Below, piece by piece: positions 177-26,745 of a stretch of DNA of 34,651 nt. The position numbers and the translations under genes were made by a program. Origin of the DNA: Erysipelotrichaceae bacterium (GTDB lineage: Bacteria > Bacillota_I > Bacilli_A > Erysipelotrichales > Erysipelotrichaceae); contig JAFZDT010000118.1 in assembly GCA_017561055.1 (NCBI GenBank), forward strand, positions 1 to 34,651. The letters are read 5' to 3'. Below the pieces are notes generated by a model. It did no database searches and was not told the origin of the DNA. It saw only the letters and a list, made by a program, of their open reading frames with translations. Numbering within the stretch: the first letter of the stretch is position 1; each line of letters begins with the position of its first letter.

Positions 177-381
177 AAATCACAGCTCCTCTACAAATTC
201 TAATTTATCGAAATAATATGTAAATAGTATATCACTTATTGTTTTATATGATTAGAAATATATTTTTATACGATACTATTCATATTATATATGCAATTGT
301 AGAAGATTGTTATGTAAAGTTTTTTTGTGTTATTAAATATAATTAATAAATATAATGTTATAATTTATTTGGTGATTGACT

Positions 382-1140
382 ATGAAAGAATTTATGAGTT
401 ATTTTTTTGGTGTGGGAACGGAAATTGAATTTGAAATATTTACATTAGCTCATTTTTTGCCAATTGTAATTATGTTTGTGCTAATTTATTTAATATATCG
501 ATATAAGGATACACTTCGTGATTCTAAAATGGATATGAGTATTCGATATATTATTGCATTTACTTTAATTATTTCTGAAATGTCGTATTATTGGAGACTT
601 GTAGGTATGCCTTCATTAGGTCCTAATCCGGTTGAACATTTGCCTATTGCTGTTTGTGGATGGGTAGCTATATTTTGTAGTTTTATGGTTATTGGTAAAT
701 CACAAACATTGTTTGATATTTCATACTTTTGGTTGTTTGCTGGATCTGTTTTTGCGTTATTAACGCCTGCTGTTATATCGTATACTGGTCCAACGAGATT
801 TCGTTATTATCAATTTTGGATTGAACATATTGGAGGATTTATTGCGATTTTCTATATGATGTTTGTTCATAAAATGCGTCCTACAATGCAATCGATGGTG
901 AAATCGTATGTGGCTTTGGTAATTATGGCTATTATTGCATATAATGCGAATCAGATAATTGGATCTGGAGCGAATTATTTGTATATGGCTCGTCCTGAAG
1001 CGGCTCCATCTATTTTAGATATATTGCCACCAAATTTTGTGTTAAGACTAATCATTATGGCTTTTGCGATAACTGTATTATTTGGTGTGGCATATTTACC
1101 ATGGTATCTTAAGGATAAAAAGGAAGTTGTTAGTCATTGA
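382..1140 (+). CDS. YwaF-type (TIGR02206-like) integral membrane protein, copy 1
   Basis: A 252-residue protein made almost wholly of hydrophobic helices, about six to seven. It opens with a short amphipathic segment followed by AHFLPIVIMF, and carries the mid-protein signature HLPIAVCGW, which resembles the LPLHLC motif of the YwaF/TIGR02206 family. The family has no established biochemical role. The start is the ATG at 382, not the TTG two codons earlier, because GGTGA lies six bases upstream. A paralogue follows after 83 bases. An inverted repeat that overlaps the stop codon may separate or modulate the two. Family call good, function unknown. Confidence 0.75.
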   Translation: MKEFMSYFFGVGTEIEFEIFTLAHFLPIVIMFVLIYLIYRYKDTLRDSKMDMSIRYIIAFTLIISEMSYYWRLVGMPSLGPNPVEHLPIAVCGWVAIFCSFMVIGKSQTLFDISYFWLFAGSVFALLTPAVISYTGPTRFRYYQFWIEHIGGFIAIFYMMFVHKMRPTMQSMVKSYVALVIMAIIAYNANQIIGSGANYLYMARPEAAPSILDILPPNFVLRLIIMAFAITVLFGVAYLPWYLKDKKEVVSH

Positions 1141-1223: not shown

Positions 1224-1952
1224 ATGAAGTATTTTTTAGAAACTACAGATACAATGGTTGAGGGATTTGGATTTTCTTACTTTGGACCATTGCATTTATG
1301 TTGGATAGCCATTTTTGTGGCATTTACTGTTTATTTATGTTTAATCTATCGTAAGGCAGATGAAGCAAAAAGAAGTAAGATGCGTAAGATTTTGGCTGCG
1401 GCCATTGTTGCGAATGAATTATGGAAGATGTTCTGGTTAACGGTTGGTGGTAATTATACTTGGGATTATTTACCATTGCATTTGTGTAGTATTAATATTT
1501 TTATTATTGCATACCATGCTTTTGTGAAGCCTAATAAAACATTGGATAATTTCTTGTATGGAGTATGTATTCCAGGTGCTTTAGCGGCTTTATTGGCTCC
1601 AACATGGGTGAAATTACCACTAGTAAATTTTATGCATTTGCATAGTTTTACGGTTCATATTTGTTTAGCGGCATATCCAATTATGTTAGTAGCCGGTGGT
1701 GATATTCAACCAGATATTAAACAAGTTCCGAAGTGTATTTTGTTTACAGCATGTATGGCTGTTCCAATTTATCTAGTAAATGTATTGTTAGATACAAACT
1801 TTATGTTTATGATGCGTGCTGATGCAGGGAATCCATTAAAACTATTTGAGCCATTAGGACATCATTTATTTGGTGTGCCAATCATTTATGCTGGTGTTGT
1901 AGTAGTTTTATATGGTCCAATTTATTTATTGAAAAGATTAAAAAAATCATAA
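1224..1952 (+). CDS. YwaF-type (TIGR02206-like) integral membrane protein, copy 2
   Basis: A 242-residue multi-pass membrane protein with the clear family signature YLPLHLCSINIF at about residues 82-93 and a His-rich segment HLHSFTVHIC further on. It is a diverged paralogue of the preceding gene: same length and same helix layout, with the Leu-Pro-Leu-His-Leu-Cys core better preserved here. A GAGG ribosome site precedes the ATG. The gene ends in a strong terminator. The family is found in Bacillota, and no substrate or enzymatic role is established. Two adjacent copies suggest a paired or heteromeric membrane unit (inference). Confidence 0.8.
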   Translation: MKYFLETTDTMVEGFGFSYFGPLHLCWIAIFVAFTVYLCLIYRKADEAKRSKMRKILAAAIVANELWKMFWLTVGGNYTWDYLPLHLCSINIFIIAYHAFVKPNKTLDNFLYGVCIPGALAALLAPTWVKLPLVNFMHLHSFTVHICLAAYPIMLVAGGDIQPDIKQVPKCILFTACMAVPIYLVNVLLDTNFMFMMRADAGNPLKLFEPLGHHLFGVPIIYAGVVVVLYGPIYLLKRLKKS

Positions 1953-1979
1953 GAAGTTCTCATTGAACTTCTTTTTTTC
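1951..1979 (+). terminator. Intrinsic terminator after the YwaF-type pair
   Basis: AAGAAGTTC pairs with GAACTTCTT around a five-base loop and is followed by a run of T. Confidence 0.85.
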
Positions 1980-2012: not shown

Positions 2013-4463
2013 ATGGCTTATTTTGGGAAATTTTATTTAGATAAAGAAAAAGACATTGTAGTCGAGTTAGATATACAAGACAGTAGATTATTCTATACTA
2101 TGTATACGATTAATCATCATTCTAAAAATTTAATTATGAATCTTGCAAAGATTACAGCACAAGAAGCAATGTGGCTAAATGATAAATATGTCATTCAAGG
2201 GGAAATACCTAGTTATATTAAAGGAGATGGACAAAAAGTTTTTATCTTCCGTTTACAAGGTACTAAGCTTGCGAATATTTATTTAGATGGAACAATTGAA
2301 GTAAATTCGGTGATTCCAGCAATCGCAAAAACCTTGATGAGCCAAACTAAAGATTATCAATATTCTTTTAGAGATACCTTAATTAAATCTTATATTCCAG
2401 AACATGTTAAATTATCTACAGATTTACATACGCATGGTAATGCCAACTTGGATGCGGATGTTTTAATTGCTTTGGCAATTAAACATCAAATTCGTTATCC
2501 ATTGTATTATATTAAGAAACTACATTTAGAAATTACTGAAAAACAACAAGAATATTTAAATAGACAAAGAGAACAAGTTAAATTGTCATTGGATACAAGT
2601 GGTTTAACTGGTAAGTATATTGAACGTAAAATTGATGATTATACGTTTATTAATTTTGCGGATTTAATTCTAAATCATCCAAATCCTACGGAAAATATTA
2701 ATAAGATTCGTAAATCATTGATGATTCTAAAAGATTCTCAAGCAGTGTTTACGAATTTAGAAAAACTGTATTTGTATCGTTATGTATTTACTAAAGGAGT
2801 ACCTGCTGATTATAAAATTGAAATTACGAATCTATCCAATATTGAAGATTTAGATATTCGTATGTATCTTGTAAGAATGTTGAAGGATATGGAAAATGCG
2901 AATTATGCAAATAATACATTGTATGAAGATACATTATTATGGATTGGTAGAGAATATCAAAGAAGACATATTCGTTATGTAGAAATTAGTGATACTACTT
3001 TAGTGAAAAAGGATATATCGAATGCGAAGATGCTTGCACAAATTCATCGTATTTTACCGTTTGTAAAAGAAGAAACAGGTGTGGATATTCGTTTTTTAGC
3101 TGCGATTCGTCGTATTCCTTTAACATTAGTAAAAGAAAATATTGTATCGAATAACTATTTGACGGAAGCTATGCAAGCATTACATGTGGTATGCAAAGAT
3201 CCATATGTTGTGGGTAGTGATTTCGTTGGTGAAGAAATCAATGATATTGAAGAATTACGTGAAGTCATTGAAGAAATTGTGCAAAAGGTTTGTAGTCAAG
3301 ATGAGAATTGGACATTACGTATTCATGCTGGTGAAAATGATTCCTTAAAGAGTAATATGGCTAAGAGTATTCAACTTGTTGAACAAGCATTGTTACCAAA
3401 TCAAAAATATCCATATATGCGTATTGGGCATGGTGTATATTGTGCAAGTTTAAAAAGTAAACAAGGAAAAGAATTGTTAGAGAAGATTCGTGCATATGGA
3501 ATGGTACTAGAATTCCAGTTAACGAGTAATGTTCGTTTGAATAATATTATTGACTTAAAACAACATCCATTAAAAACATATTTAAAACAAGGTATTTCTT
3601 GTGTTATGGGTACTGATGGTTGTGGATTATATGGTACGGATGGAATTCATGAACAATTAGCATTAATTAACTTAATGAAAGTGTCTGATGAAGAATTTAA
3701 GAAGATTCGTGCTGTGGAAAATGAGATTATAGAACGACAAGCATTGAATTTTGATAAGAAGATGGTTGTGTATCAAGATGTGGATGATATTGAGAAATAT
3801 TATCAAGAAGCTTTACAACAAGAATTTGATATTCATGATGTTAAGTTTGCGATTTCGAAAGTACCTTCTTATCCGGTTTGCAAGCCAAAAGTTGTTGAGT
3901 TGCCTTGGGATAAGTATCCAATTGTACTTGCAGGTGGAAGCTTTTCAAATGTGAATACATCTAAGGTATCTGAAAGTGAACAACAGTTATTAAGGTCTTT
4001 GATGGAACAATTGGATCCGAATAAAGTGTTCTTTGTAGTTGGTCATAAATTAACGGGTCAAGAAGGATTCTTGGTAAAAGAGAATACGAAGTTTGATATT
4101 TATAGTATTGTGCCATCATTAATGAATGAGAACCAACTTAAAAAATTATATAAAGCAAATATCAAAGGAATTCGTATTTCTACAGAATCACAAGAAATGG
4201 GTATTTATAAAAGTTTTAACTATGAAATCTTTGAACGTAGAAATTGTGCATTATTAGCCTTTGATGGAAATTCTGCAGTGGCCAATTTGGTGCAAGAAGC
4301 TCGTAATGGTAAGGGGCGTTGTTGGATTTTTATATATCCTAAGAGTAAGATGTTAAAGGCGAAAGCAACATCTTTACAAGGGTATGTTACAATGAATGCA
4401 ACGAGTGAAGAAGTAATAGAAAAGATTGAAGAGATTCAAGATAATATTGGAACAAAATTATAG
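2013..4463 (+). CDS. Adenosine-deaminase-like amidohydrolase fused to a C-terminal Rossmann/SLOG-like domain
   Basis: An 816-residue protein, more than twice the length of ordinary adenosine deaminase (about 340). Residues 1-130 are an N-terminal extension of unknown type. Residues 135-580 carry the deaminase landmarks in order: DLHTHGN (137-143, metal-binding HxH), GSDFVGEE (401-408), HAGEN (438-442, catalytic Glu), IGHG (471-474, metal His), LTSN (503-506) and GTDG (533-536). The usual TDD is therefore TDG: the metal Asp is kept but the next Asp, which contacts the purine in classical enzymes, is missing. Residues about 636-800 form a separate domain that starts PIVLAGGSFS, continues KVFFVVGHK, and has CALLAFDGNSAV before a basic end; this alternating strand/helix pattern resembles a nucleotide-binding SLOG/LOG or DprA-like fold (inference). 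AGGTGAG precedes the ATG. The gene stands alone between terminators. Deaminase relationship is firm; substrate is open. Confidence 0.75.
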   Translation: MAYFGKFYLDKEKDIVVELDIQDSRLFYTMYTINHHSKNLIMNLAKITAQEAMWLNDKYVIQGEIPSYIKGDGQKVFIFRLQGTKLANIYLDGTIEVNSVIPAIAKTLMSQTKDYQYSFRDTLIKSYIPEHVKLSTDLHTHGNANLDADVLIALAIKHQIRYPLYYIKKLHLEITEKQQEYLNRQREQVKLSLDTSGLTGKYIERKIDDYTFINFADLILNHPNPTENINKIRKSLMILKDSQAVFTNLEKLYLYRYVFTKGVPADYKIEITNLSNIEDLDIRMYLVRMLKDMENANYANNTLYEDTLLWIGREYQRRHIRYVEISDTTLVKKDISNAKMLAQIHRILPFVKEETGVDIRFLAAIRRIPLTLVKENIVSNNYLTEAMQALHVVCKDPYVVGSDFVGEEINDIEELREVIEEIVQKVCSQDENWTLRIHAGENDSLKSNMAKSIQLVEQALLPNQKYPYMRIGHGVYCASLKSKQGKELLEKIRAYGMVLEFQLTSNVRLNNIIDLKQHPLKTYLKQGISCVMGTDGCGLYGTDGIHEQLALINLMKVSDEEFKKIRAVENEIIERQALNFDKKMVVYQDVDDIEKYYQEALQQEFDIHDVKFAISKVPSYPVCKPKVVELPWDKYPIVLAGGSFSNVNTSKVSESEQQLLRSLMEQLDPNKVFFVVGHKLTGQEGFLVKENTKFDIYSIVPSLMNENQLKKLYKANIKGIRISTESQEMGIYKSFNYEIFERRNCALLAFDGNSAVANLVQEARNGKGRCWIFIYPKSKMLKAKATSLQGYVTMNATSEEVIEKIEEIQDNIGTKL

Positions 4464-4490
4464 AAATGGGAAGCATAAGCTTCCCATTTT
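4463..4490. terminator. Bidirectional terminator between convergent genes
   Basis: An eleven-base perfect stem, AAATGGGAAGC with GCTTCCCATTT, and an ATAA loop. A T-rich run follows on the plus strand, and the other strand ends in a short T stretch. It serves both the deaminase-like gene and the convergent YhhN gene. Confidence 0.85.
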
Positions 4491-12282: not shown

Positions 12283-13134
12283 ATGAAACCTTTTGTTGTT
12301 ATTCAAACAGACTTTTCATTAACTTGGAGTGCTGTAAGCTCTATGAAGGGTGTAATGAAAATTGTAGATCCAACATTACAAATTGAGGATATTACACATG
12401 ATATTAAGAACTTTAGTCCATGGGAAGCGAGTATGTCTTTAAATACAGTTGAACCATATTGGCCTAAAGGAACAGTTTTTGTATCTGTTGTAGATCCAGG
12501 TGTTGGTACAAGTCGTAAGGCTAGTGTTGCTTTATTGGAAAATGGAAATTATGTGGTTACACCAGATAATGGTGCGTTAACACATTTATTGCATCGTGTA
12601 GGTGTTAAGGAAATTCGTGAAATTGATGAAACTGTGAATCGTTTTAAAGCGCAAGAAGAAGTTTCAGTATTCCATGGGCGTGATTTATTTGGATATTGTG
12701 CTGCGAAATTAGCGGCTGGCTTGATTACTTTTGAAGAAGTTGGTCCTGCTTATCCAGTAAGTGATATTGTAGAGTGTGAAGAATATTATATTAAACCTGT
12801 ATTAGGTGATTGCCATGCGCAAGGGTTTATTCAATCTGGTTTAAAACACTTCGGTGGTGTGCAAATGAATATTACAAACGAAGAATGGAAGAAATGTGGT
12901 TTCCAATTGGGTGATACAGTTGCGATTCGTATTACGCATGATGGAGAAGGTGTTTTCCATGAAAATGTTTTATATCATGAATCTTTTGGTTATGTTAAGA
13001 AAGGGGATCCAATTCTTTATTGTGGAAGTAGTCAATACTTATGCTTAGACTGTAATATGGATAATTTTATGGCTGTTTATGGTATTGATAGTGGTAAAGA
13101 ATGGGAAATTGAATTTACTAAAGTAGGTAGATAA
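12283..13134 (+). CDS. SAM hydrolase / SAM hydroxide adenosyltransferase family (DUF62), paralogue A
   Basis: A 283-residue protein of the DUF62 family, whose characterised members split S-adenosylmethionine into adenosine and methionine using a water held by an Asp-Arg-His triad. All three are here: D71 (VVDPGVG), R78 (SRK) and H131 (FHGRD). The Thr-Pro-Asp-Asn-Gly motif TPDNG is at 93-97. The N-terminal motif is unusual: TDFSLTWSAV replaces the TDFGLVDGAV seen in paralogue B, so the conserved Gly and Asp-Gly of that loop are gone. It begins 12 bases after the peptidase gene and ends two bases before paralogue B. Full length, so not obviously decayed; changed substrate or a hetero-oligomer is possible. 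Confidence 0.88.
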   Translation: MKPFVVIQTDFSLTWSAVSSMKGVMKIVDPTLQIEDITHDIKNFSPWEASMSLNTVEPYWPKGTVFVSVVDPGVGTSRKASVALLENGNYVVTPDNGALTHLLHRVGVKEIREIDETVNRFKAQEEVSVFHGRDLFGYCAAKLAAGLITFEEVGPAYPVSDIVECEEYYIKPVLGDCHAQGFIQSGLKHFGGVQMNITNEEWKKCGFQLGDTVAIRITHDGEGVFHENVLYHESFGYVKKGDPILYCGSSQYLCLDCNMDNFMAVYGIDSGKEWEIEFTKVGR

Positions 13135-13135
13135 T

Positions 13136-13978
13136 ATGACTAAGTTATTAGTGTTTCAAAGTGATTTTGGATTAGTTGATGGTGCTGTAGCGGCTATGTA
13201 TGGTGTAGCACTAGGTGTTGATACAGATATTAAAGTTTATGATTTAACTCATAATATTCCACCATTTAACATTTGGGAAGCTTCTTATCGTTTGATTCAA
13301 ACTGTGCCTTATTGGCCTGAAGGATCTGTGTTTGTATCTGTAGTAGACCCAGGTGTTGGTTCTAGTCGTAAAAGTGTGGTTGCCAAAACAAAGCAAGGAC
13401 AGTATATCGTGTCTCCAGATAATGGTACATTAACACATGTAAAACGTTTGATTGGAATTGAAGAAGTTCGTGAAATTGATGAAGCGAAATGTCGTAGAGA
13501 GAATTCTGAGAATTCATACACATTCCATGGGCGTGATGTTTATGCGTATACTGGAGCGCAATTAGCTAGTGGTAAGTTATCTTTTGAAGAAGTTGGTCAC
13601 TTATTACCAGTTGAAGATGTTGTAGAATTTGATGATATTTCAGCTACTTTAGAAGATGGTGTAATTAAAGGTTCTATTGATATTCTTGATGTTCGTTTTG
13701 GTAGTTTGTGGACGAATATTTCTAGAGCGATGTTTGAAGAATTACATATTCAACCACGTGATTTGGTGGAATTGTCTATTTATAATGGTTCTGTTCGTAT
13801 TTATCAAAATCGTGTAACTTATGGTAATACGTTTGCGGATGTTAATGTTGGGGAAATTATTTGTTATGTGAATTCTATGGATCATATGGCAATTGCGATT
13901 AACCAAGGTAACTTTGCGAAAGCGTATAATGTGGGAACACAACAACCATGGCGAATTGAATTTAGAAAAGTAAATTAA
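13136..13978 (+). CDS. SAM hydrolase / SAM hydroxide adenosyltransferase family (DUF62), paralogue B
   Basis: A 280-residue DUF62 enzyme with the canonical N-terminal motif SDFGLVDGAVAAMYGV, the triad D71, R78 and H131 at exactly the same residue numbers as paralogue A, and SPDNG at 93-97. It is expected to cleave S-adenosylmethionine or a related adenosyl compound in the cytoplasm, releasing adenosine and methionine. It starts one base after the TAG stop of paralogue A (TAGATAATATG context), so it is co-translated. A terminator follows directly. Of the two paralogues this is the one I expect to be catalytically standard. Confidence 0.9.
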   Translation: MTKLLVFQSDFGLVDGAVAAMYGVALGVDTDIKVYDLTHNIPPFNIWEASYRLIQTVPYWPEGSVFVSVVDPGVGSSRKSVVAKTKQGQYIVSPDNGTLTHVKRLIGIEEVREIDEAKCRRENSENSYTFHGRDVYAYTGAQLASGKLSFEEVGHLLPVEDVVEFDDISATLEDGVIKGSIDILDVRFGSLWTNISRAMFEELHIQPRDLVELSIYNGSVRIYQNRVTYGNTFADVNVGEIICYVNSMDHMAIAINQGNFAKAYNVGTQQPWRIEFRKVN

Positions 13979-19297: not shown

Positions 19298-19566
19298 ATA
19301 TAAAAACATTGAAAAGAAGAGTATCTTCGTGAACATTTAAACAGAGAGTCCTAGAATTGGTGGAATAGGAAAAAGTAGTAACGTTGAGAAAATGGTCTTG
19401 GAGTTGTATTACTGAGGGTTTTGCTTTAGGTAATATCGGGTTTGCCCGTTATAGCAATAGGGTATAGTAGTTTTGTACTCGAAGAGGTCAATATAGTGAT
19501 ATATTGATAAATTAAGGTGGTAACGCGAAACAGTAGTCTCGTCCTTATATAGGATGAGATTTTTTT
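19298..19566 (+). promoter_or_regulatory. T-box leader, methionine specifier, upstream of metNIQ
   Basis: A tRNA-sensing leader of about 270 bases. Visible parts: AGTA near the 5' base of stem I (19320-19323), the AGAGAG and GGTG apical motifs, the T-box AAGGTGGTAACGCG (19514-19527), and a terminator at 19537-19566 (TCTCGTCCT with AGGATGAGA, then T). In the specifier loop GAAAATGG stands before TCTT (19396-19399), which pairs with AAGA (19314-19317). By alignment with the second T-box of this window the specifier triplet is ATG at 19392-19394, that is Met. TGGT in the T-box fits an A discriminator base. Uncharged tRNA-Met should allow transcription of the three genes that follow. Confidence 0.9.
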
Positions 19567-26509: not shown

Positions 26510-26515
26510 AATACC

Positions 26516-26745
26516 ATATTCAAAGAACAAGAGAGTAGCTTGATGAATTCTTTTAAAGCGAGTCGGGTTGGTGGAAGCCGATAAGAGGAAGTTGGGTGAA
26601 CCGCACTTGTTGGAAGTCTATTTGAACTTAGTAGGATGGACCGTAGATCTGCGTTAAAGATTTGAGGTGGTCAAATGTATAATTTGACAATTAGAGTGGT
26701 ACCGCGATAACATGTCGTCTCTATTTTTAGAGACGACATTTTTTA
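26516..26745 (+). promoter_or_regulatory. T-box leader with probable arginine (CGC) specifier
   Basis: Stem I base AACAAG (26526-26531) pairs with CTTGTT (26606-26611), with AGAGTAGC on the 5' side and GGTTGGTGGAAGCC at the apex. The T-box AGAGTGGTACCGCG is at 26693-26706. The terminator TGTCGTCTCT with AGAGACGACA, followed by T, is at 26712-26745. The specifier strand reads GAACCGCA directly before CTTG. Lined up with the Met T-box of this window (GAAAATGG before TCTT) the specifier is CGC at 26602-26604, an Arg codon followed by a purine as is usual. It should turn on the downstream transporter when arginine is short. Confidence 0.88.

What the first reader, a model, noticed from the sequence alone, without database searches (positions are those of the whole stretch)
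2013..4463. Adenosine-deaminase-like enzyme joined to a Rossmann/SLOG-like domain
Visible: deaminase motifs at residues 137-536, an unassigned 130-residue N-terminal part and a C-terminal alpha/beta domain with GG and Asp-Gly-Asn-Ser elements. Known: SLOG/LOG domains bind nucleotide ligands and occur in nucleotide-signalling conflict systems, and large divergent adenosine deaminases act in RADAR phage defence. Inference: this could be a stand-alone nucleotide-sensing deaminase. No RdrA-like ATPase is adjacent, so it is not a standard RADAR locus.
Basis: partly seen in the sequence, partly recalled or inferred. Interest (0 to 1): 0.68.

Follow-up and report, generated by a model that had tools for sequence, protein, structure and literature searches.

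The report
Deaminase fused to likely nucleotide sensor
Some gut bacteria carry a large single-gene enzyme that joins an adenosine-deaminase core, altered at the two spots that normally grip plain adenosine, to a domain that probably binds a nucleotide; it resembles known phage-defence deaminases in design, but its job is untested.

Summary
The ORF at 2013-4463 (+, 816 aa) is real and conserved: 30 aligned homologues (47-94% identical) share all three parts, so far only in two families of one order. The core is an ADA-fold deaminase with every metal and catalytic residue invariant, but the two aspartates by which canonical ADA grips adenosine are replaced (Asp19->Asn143, 30/31; Asp296->Gly536, 31/31). 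These are the positions changed in the ATP deaminase Cad1, so a phosphorylated substrate is more likely than adenosine. The C-terminal domain best matches YspA/DUF2493-type SLOG domains (profile probability about 76%, end to end), above nearly all controls but below LOG and DprA; one unrelated protein scored similarly. AlphaFold failed for lack of an admissible alignment. It is neither RADAR (no RdrA; no RdrB profile match, whereas true RdrB genes of the same order match) nor Cad1 (no CARF, no CRISPR). Neighbours are unrelated housekeeping genes, neither purine salvage nor defence islands. Most likely: a stand-alone, ligand-gated nucleotide deaminase, like Cad1 in principle but with another sensor. 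The mechanism is inferred; a defence role is unsupported.

The parts
2013..4463 (+). gene for the 816-aa three-domain deaminase
   Evidence: open frame; full-length homologues at 47-94% identity
2013..2411 (+). N-terminal domain, residues 1-133, unassigned; conserved FYLDxEKD, TPNH, KTLMSQTK
   Evidence: as conserved as the core, no Pfam or PDB match
2412..3689 (+). ADA-fold deaminase domain, residues 134-559, with family-specific insertions before residue 314
   Evidence: Pfam A_deaminase 3.1e-18 at 314-592; profile match to ADA 97%
2427..2444 (+). HTHGNA, residues 139-144: metal ligands H139 and H141; N143 at the place of ADA Asp19
   Evidence: H139/H141 31/31, N143 30/31
3324..3335 (+). HAGE, residues 438-441: metal ligand H438 and catalytic E441
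   Evidence: 31/31
3420..3434 (+). RIGHG, residues 470-474: catalytic H473
   Evidence: 31/31
3609..3620 (+). GTDG, residues 533-536: metal ligand D535; G536 at the place of ADA Asp296
   Evidence: D535 and G536 31/31
3894..4412 (+). C-terminal SLOG-like domain, residues 628-800
   Evidence: hhalign 76.5% to YspA/DUF2493-type SLOG over 112 columns
3933..3944 (+). GGSF loop, residues 641-644
   Evidence: S643 and F644 invariant, GG nearly so
4206..4214 (+). YKS motif, residues 732-734, at about the place of the SLOG RN motif
   Evidence: invariant
4263..4274 (+). DGNS loop, residues 751-754, at the place of the SLOG GGxGT loop
   Evidence: G752 invariant, N753/S754 nearly so, D751 variable
1951..1973 (+). 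terminator-like hairpin between the upstream gene and this one
   Evidence: 5 such sites found against 1.3 +/- 1.2 in shuffles
4463..4490 (.). terminator-like hairpin (both directions) after the stop codon

Best explanation
A single-gene, three-domain nucleotide deaminase. The central ADA-fold domain holds a metal (H139, H141, H438, D535) and uses Glu441 and His473 to replace an amino group by oxygen (sequence conservation shown; chemistry inferred from the family). Because both aspartates that anchor plain adenosine are replaced (Asn143, Gly536), the substrate is probably a phosphorylated adenine nucleotide (ATP, dATP or a related nucleotide) rather than adenosine (inferred by analogy with Cad1). 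The C-terminal SLOG-like domain probably binds a small nucleotide-type ligand and gates the deaminase, as CARF does in Cad1, with the N-terminal domain helping assembly or gating (inferred). It acts without a dedicated partner gene.
For: Deaminase family match and invariant catalytic set in 31 sequences. Asp19 and Asp296 replaced, the two substitutions that set the ATP deaminase TaqCad1 apart and are needed for its ATP activity (PMC12669630). The only defence-library match is the CARF_ADA model, 1.9e-8 through the deaminase core. C-domain matches SLOG at 76.5% end to end; the whole protein places the match at the C-terminus; non-SLOG profiles score below 4%; 0 of 400 shuffled profiles reach the score. 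Invariant residues sit in the loops where SLOG domains bind ligands. Invariant K169, R205, K332, R366, R367 and R508 could contact phosphates (role inferred). No conserved neighbour; terminator-like sites on both sides. The window's genome also has a separate ADA-family gene with an intact HVHFDGS motif, so plain adenosine is probably dealt with elsewhere.
Against: No structure. The SLOG match is below certainty: LOG and DprA score 95% against the same profile, one unrelated phosphoesterase scored 74%, and resampling the SLOG set gives 11-85%. SLOG signature residues (GSR, RN, GGxGT) are replaced. Some ordinary ADAs of the class have TDN instead of TDD, so the second substitution alone is not diagnostic. 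Gly at 296 and Asn at 19 are not the residues Cad1 has there. No ligand or signal synthase is known.
Confidence: 0.45

Rival explanations
1. A constitutive metabolic purine (nucleoside or nucleotide) deaminase of altered specificity, whose N- and C-terminal domains only build the oligomer or complete the active site; no sensing.
For: Housekeeping neighbourhoods, no phage or plasmid copies, substantial vertical inheritance (11 of 19 well-supported splits shared with RpoB).
Against: Patchy presence, with 6 well-supported conflicts with RpoB; no linkage to purine genes; strongly conserved loop motifs in the C-domain suggest ligand binding rather than mere packing.
Confidence: 0.3
2. A one-gene anti-phage effector: a phage-induced nucleotide signal binds the SLOG-like domain and the deaminase then converts ATP/dATP to ITP/dITP, stopping phage growth.
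For: Cad1 and RdrB do this with related deaminase domains (PMC11645235, PMC9994260); patchy distribution with some transfer; SLOG domains act as signal receptors in Thoeris ThsA (PMC11204291).
Against: No defence-island context, no partner or signal synthase nearby, no CRISPR, not on plasmids or phages.
Confidence: 0.15
3. A bifunctional enzyme: the ADA core deaminates a purine nucleotide and the SLOG-like domain then cleaves its N-glycosidic bond, as LOG-family nucleosidases do.
For: LOG enzymes are SLOG-fold nucleotide N-ribosidases (own knowledge); the two reactions would form a short pathway.
Against: No direct match to LOG (below 1%); by the alignment with DUF2493, the place of the LOG catalytic Glu holds invariant Asn758 (inference).
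Confidence: 0.05
4. A diverged member of RADAR (RdrB) or of Cad1.
For: As in RdrB (PMC9994260), there is an N-terminal extension and extra sequence between HxH and the third metal His; the CARF_ADA model matches the core.
Against: No RdrB model match, while true RdrBs of the same order match at 6e-24 or better; profile comparison with those RdrBs only 14%, over 60 columns; no CARF, no RdrA, no CRISPR.
Confidence: 0.03

Closest known systems
Cad1 / CAAD (CARF-fused adenosine deaminase of type III CRISPR, ATP to ITP)
   Same: Sensor-type Rossmannoid domain plus ADA-fold deaminase in one chain; the same two active-site aspartates replaced; PADLOC CARF_ADA model matches the core.
   Different: No CARF, no CRISPR; putative sensor at the C-terminus instead of the N-terminus; Asn/Gly instead of Gly/Asn at the two sites; 816 aa against about 600; extra N-terminal domain.
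RdrB of RADAR
   Same: ADA-fold deaminase of about 800 residues with an N-terminal extension and extra sequence splitting the catalytic motifs.
   Different: No RdrA ATPase; no RdrB profile match; the RdrBs of this order have YHVGE and NTDD, this family HAGE and GTDG; an additional C-terminal domain.
Canonical adenosine deaminase (Add, PF00962)
   Same: Fold, metal ligands, catalytic Glu and His, RIGHG and TSN motifs.
   Different: Asp19 and Asp296 replaced; two extra domains; scores far below the Add equivalog cut-offs.
SLOG superfamily, YspA/DUF2493 branch
   Same: End-to-end profile match of the C-terminal domain; glycine-rich loops in equivalent places.
   Different: Signature residues differ (GSR to GSF, RN to YKS, GGxGT to GNSAx); match below certainty.

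Membership tests
Adenosine deaminase family (PF00962) | profile match over curated cut-off | tested here: met
   66.4 bits against cut-off 27
Adenosine deaminase family (PF00962) | metal ligands and catalytic residues | tested here: met
   H139, H141, H438, E441, H473, D535 in 31/31
Canonical adenosine deaminase (Add) | Asp19 and Asp296 that bind adenosine | tested here: not met
   Asn143 30/31 and Gly536 31/31
Canonical adenosine deaminase (Add) | Add equivalog score | tested here: not met
   54 bits at best against a cut-off of 459
RADAR (RdrB) | RdrB profile match | tested here: not met
   no match up to E=10; positive controls from the same order match
RADAR (RdrB) | adjacent RdrA ATPase | tested here: not met
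   no conserved neighbour in 32 loci; none in the window
Cad1 | N-terminal CARF domain | tested here: not met
   only the deaminase part of the CARF_ADA model matches; N-domain matches no Pfam family
Cad1 | type III CRISPR locus | tested here: not met
   no CRISPR-like array in 548 kb of loci, no recurring Cas neighbour
Cad1 | Asp19 and Asp296 replaced | tested here: met
   both replaced, by other residues than in TaqCad1
Cad1 / RdrB | ATP-to-ITP deamination | not testable with these tools
   needs a purified protein
SLOG superfamily (C-terminal domain) | profile homology | tested here: inconclusive
   76.5%, end to end, above nearly all controls but below LOG/DprA, with one false positive at 74%
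SLOG superfamily (C-terminal domain) | RN and GGxGT signature motifs | tested here: not met
   replaced by conserved YKS and GNSAxAN
SLOG superfamily (C-terminal domain) | Rossmannoid fold in a confident model | tested here: inconclusive
   pLDDT 29 and 31 with only two admissible sequences

The most novel reading that the evidence does not exclude
A previously undescribed single-gene immune or stress switch in Erysipelotrichales: an unknown nucleotide signal binds a C-terminal SLOG-type domain and turns on a nucleotide deaminase that depletes ATP/dATP. It would be a CRISPR-independent counterpart of Cad1 with a different sensor.
Probability: 0.12. Interest if true: 0.85.

Novelty: new variant of a known kind. 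Interest (0 to 1): 0.5.

Why it matters
ATP-to-ITP deamination by RdrB and Cad1 is a recently recognised way of stopping phage growth, and both need a second component to switch them on. A one-gene, sensor-fused deaminase found in gut Erysipelotrichales would widen that theme, or would reveal a new regulated nucleotide-pool enzyme. The Asp19/Asp296 substitutions and the putative ligand domain make both halves of the hypothesis testable with one purified protein.

Tried and rejected
RADAR membership: rejected, with positive controls from the same order. Cad1 membership: rejected (no CARF, no CRISPR). Toprim for the C-domain: 7 of 27 members weakly matched Toprim_2 (best 0.0012), but hhalign aligned only 21 residues around the DGNS strand and D751 is not conserved; rejected. 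DprA, LOG and NDT gave no direct match to the C-domain. AlphaFold on the full length and on the C-domain with the two admissible sequences failed (pLDDT 29 and 31), so no fold search was run; the deeper homologue alignment was not submitted because its loci came from a tool that is not on the structure tool's list. Searches in phages, plasmids and viral contigs found only ordinary ADAs or nothing; a C-domain consensus found nothing significant. The genome-contig scan, run with one sequence, found only the closest relative, so phyla outside Bacilli remain unsurveyed. A first RpoB tree was spoiled by picking the longest ORF in GC-rich loci and was redone by homology. Promoter-like sites were no more frequent than in shuffles.

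Full report
What is there. The ORF at 2013-4463 on the + strand encodes 816 residues. Pfam recognises only the adenosine-deaminase core, residues 314-592, E=3.1e-18; NCBIfam equivalogs for adenosine deaminase hit far below their cut-offs, so it is not a standard Add. In PADLOC the only hit is the CARF_ADA model, 1.9e-8, through residues 311-554.

A real, conserved family. In an order-level sample of 196 genomes, 31 genomes besides the window's own carry a full-length relative (47-94% identical), all in the window's family and one neighbouring family. Thirty of these were aligned with the window's protein; all have the same three parts. Class- and phylum-level samples added full-length relatives only from the same two families. 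No full-length relative was found in the phage, plasmid or viral-contig collections. Other phyla could not be surveyed properly: the single genome-contig scan, run with one sequence, is insensitive. Against an RpoB tree of 29 genomes, 11 of 19 well-supported gene-tree splits agree and 6 conflict; patristic distances correlate at r=0.45, with 0 of 999 permutations as high. Inheritance is therefore mixed: vertical in shallow clades, with some transfer.

Context. Around 32 copies of the gene no neighbour recurs except in close relatives, apart from a patatin-like gene near five of them. Neighbours are diverse housekeeping genes; the recurring Pfam families (aldo/keto reductase, VanZ, FeoA, patatin and others) match at most three of 113 neighbour proteins from 22 loci, and none of the 25 listed is a purine-salvage family. 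PADLOC hits among these neighbours are mostly helicase-type models matched by one or two proteins, not a recurring system. No CRISPR-like array lies in 548 kb of loci. In the window the gene is bracketed by terminator-like hairpins at 1951-1973 and 4463-4490, so it is probably transcribed alone; in about half the other loci a same-strand gene follows within 50 bases, but a different one in different clades.

Deaminase core. All residues of ADA chemistry are invariant in 31 sequences: H139, H141, H438, E441, H473, D535. Two positions depart from canonical ADA. Asp19 of mouse ADA, which bonds the 5'- and 3'-hydroxyls of adenosine, corresponds by motif position to Asn143 (30/31); Asp296 corresponds to Gly536 (31/31). 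In TaqCad1, which deaminates ATP but lacks adenosine deamination activity, the same two positions are Gly264 and Asn549, and putting Asp back at 549, or at both, abolishes ATP deamination (PMC12669630). Ordinary single-domain ADAs of the same class keep the HLDG motif, though some have TDN at the second site. The window's genome also has its own 336-aa ADA-family gene with an intact HVHFDGS motif. A phosphorylated substrate is therefore the better bet; this is inference from analogy, not a measurement.

Not RADAR, not Cad1. The search for ADA relatives turned up RdrB genes in the same order (L078, L079, L080, L082), each matching a PADLOC RdrB model at 6e-24 or better and each with a large ORF directly upstream. 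The window's family matches neither RdrB model and aligns with those RdrBs over only 60 columns at 14% probability. Like RdrB it has an N-terminal extension and extra sequence between HxH and the third metal His (RdrB H152/H154, H498, H530, PMC9994260; here 139/141, 438, 473), but that alone is not membership. It lacks CARF and CRISPR, so it is not Cad1.

C-terminal domain. Pfam and PDB sequence searches find nothing significant. A profile of 27 members compared with 22 YspA/DUF2493-type SLOG sequences gives 76.5% probability over 112 columns, end to end. Yardsticks against the same SLOG profile: LOG 94.9% and DprA 95.2% (known SLOG members); NDT 1.6%, Toprim 0.2%, ADA 3.8%, RdrB 0.2%, the N-terminal domain 0.2%. 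None of 400 shuffled profiles reached the score, but one of 113 unrelated single proteins, a metallophosphoesterase, reached 74%. With the whole protein as query the match still falls on the C-terminus (47%); resampling the family keeps the full-domain register at 39-86%, while resampling the SLOG set gives 11-85%, mostly in the same register. I read this as a probable but unproven SLOG relationship. The signature RN and GGxGT motifs are replaced by an equally conserved set (YKS, GNSAxAN), so the ligand, if any, may be unusual, and no LOG-type catalytic Glu is apparent. AlphaFold could not help: only two near-identical sequences were admissible and both models had pLDDT about 30.

N-terminal domain. 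Residues 1-130 are as conserved as the core (34% of columns at least 90% conserved, against 37%) but match nothing.

Mechanism. Shown: family, domain layout, invariant catalytic set, loss of both adenosine-anchoring aspartates, stand-alone context, absence of RADAR and CRISPR features. Inferred: metal-dependent deamination of a phosphorylated purine; a ligand in the SLOG-like domain gating it. Speculative: a role in phage defence. Searches of the held literature found no description of a SLOG-deaminase fusion; most subscription papers are not held, so a prior mention cannot be excluded.

Noticed in passing
L078:3898-9833, L079:1-5362, L080:2705-7709, L082:2878-6826: RADAR-type loci in the same bacterial order: RdrB-matching genes, each directly preceded by a large ORF (presumably RdrA; one weakly matches PifA, one matches nothing in PADLOC).
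   Followed up: partly
L057, L058, L067, L068, L071 (cluster c1): A patatin-like phospholipase gene lies next to or two genes from the deaminase in 5 of 32 loci, in two different positions; patatins are effectors in some nucleotide-signalling defences, but here it may be chance.
   Followed up: no
window 376-1140 and 1224-1952: Two tandem, distinct TMEM164-like (TIGR02206-type) membrane proteins directly upstream of the deaminase gene.
   Followed up: no
window 12283-13134 and 13136-13978: Two tandem SAM hydroxide adenosyltransferase genes just downstream of ECF transporter genes and a peptidase, followed by a DeoR-type regulator.
   Followed up: no
window 19300-19549 and 26514-26725: Two T-box leaders: one upstream of NIL-type ABC transporter genes, one upstream of a metallo-beta-lactamase-fold gene followed by amino-acid-type ABC transporter genes.
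   Followed up: no
G000:C118 and G000:C164 (L187, L215): The window's assembly holds two rpoB pieces and is listed at 6.45% contamination; the window gene itself has a 94% identical copy in a same-genus genome with partly shared synteny, so the finding is not affected.
   Followed up: partly
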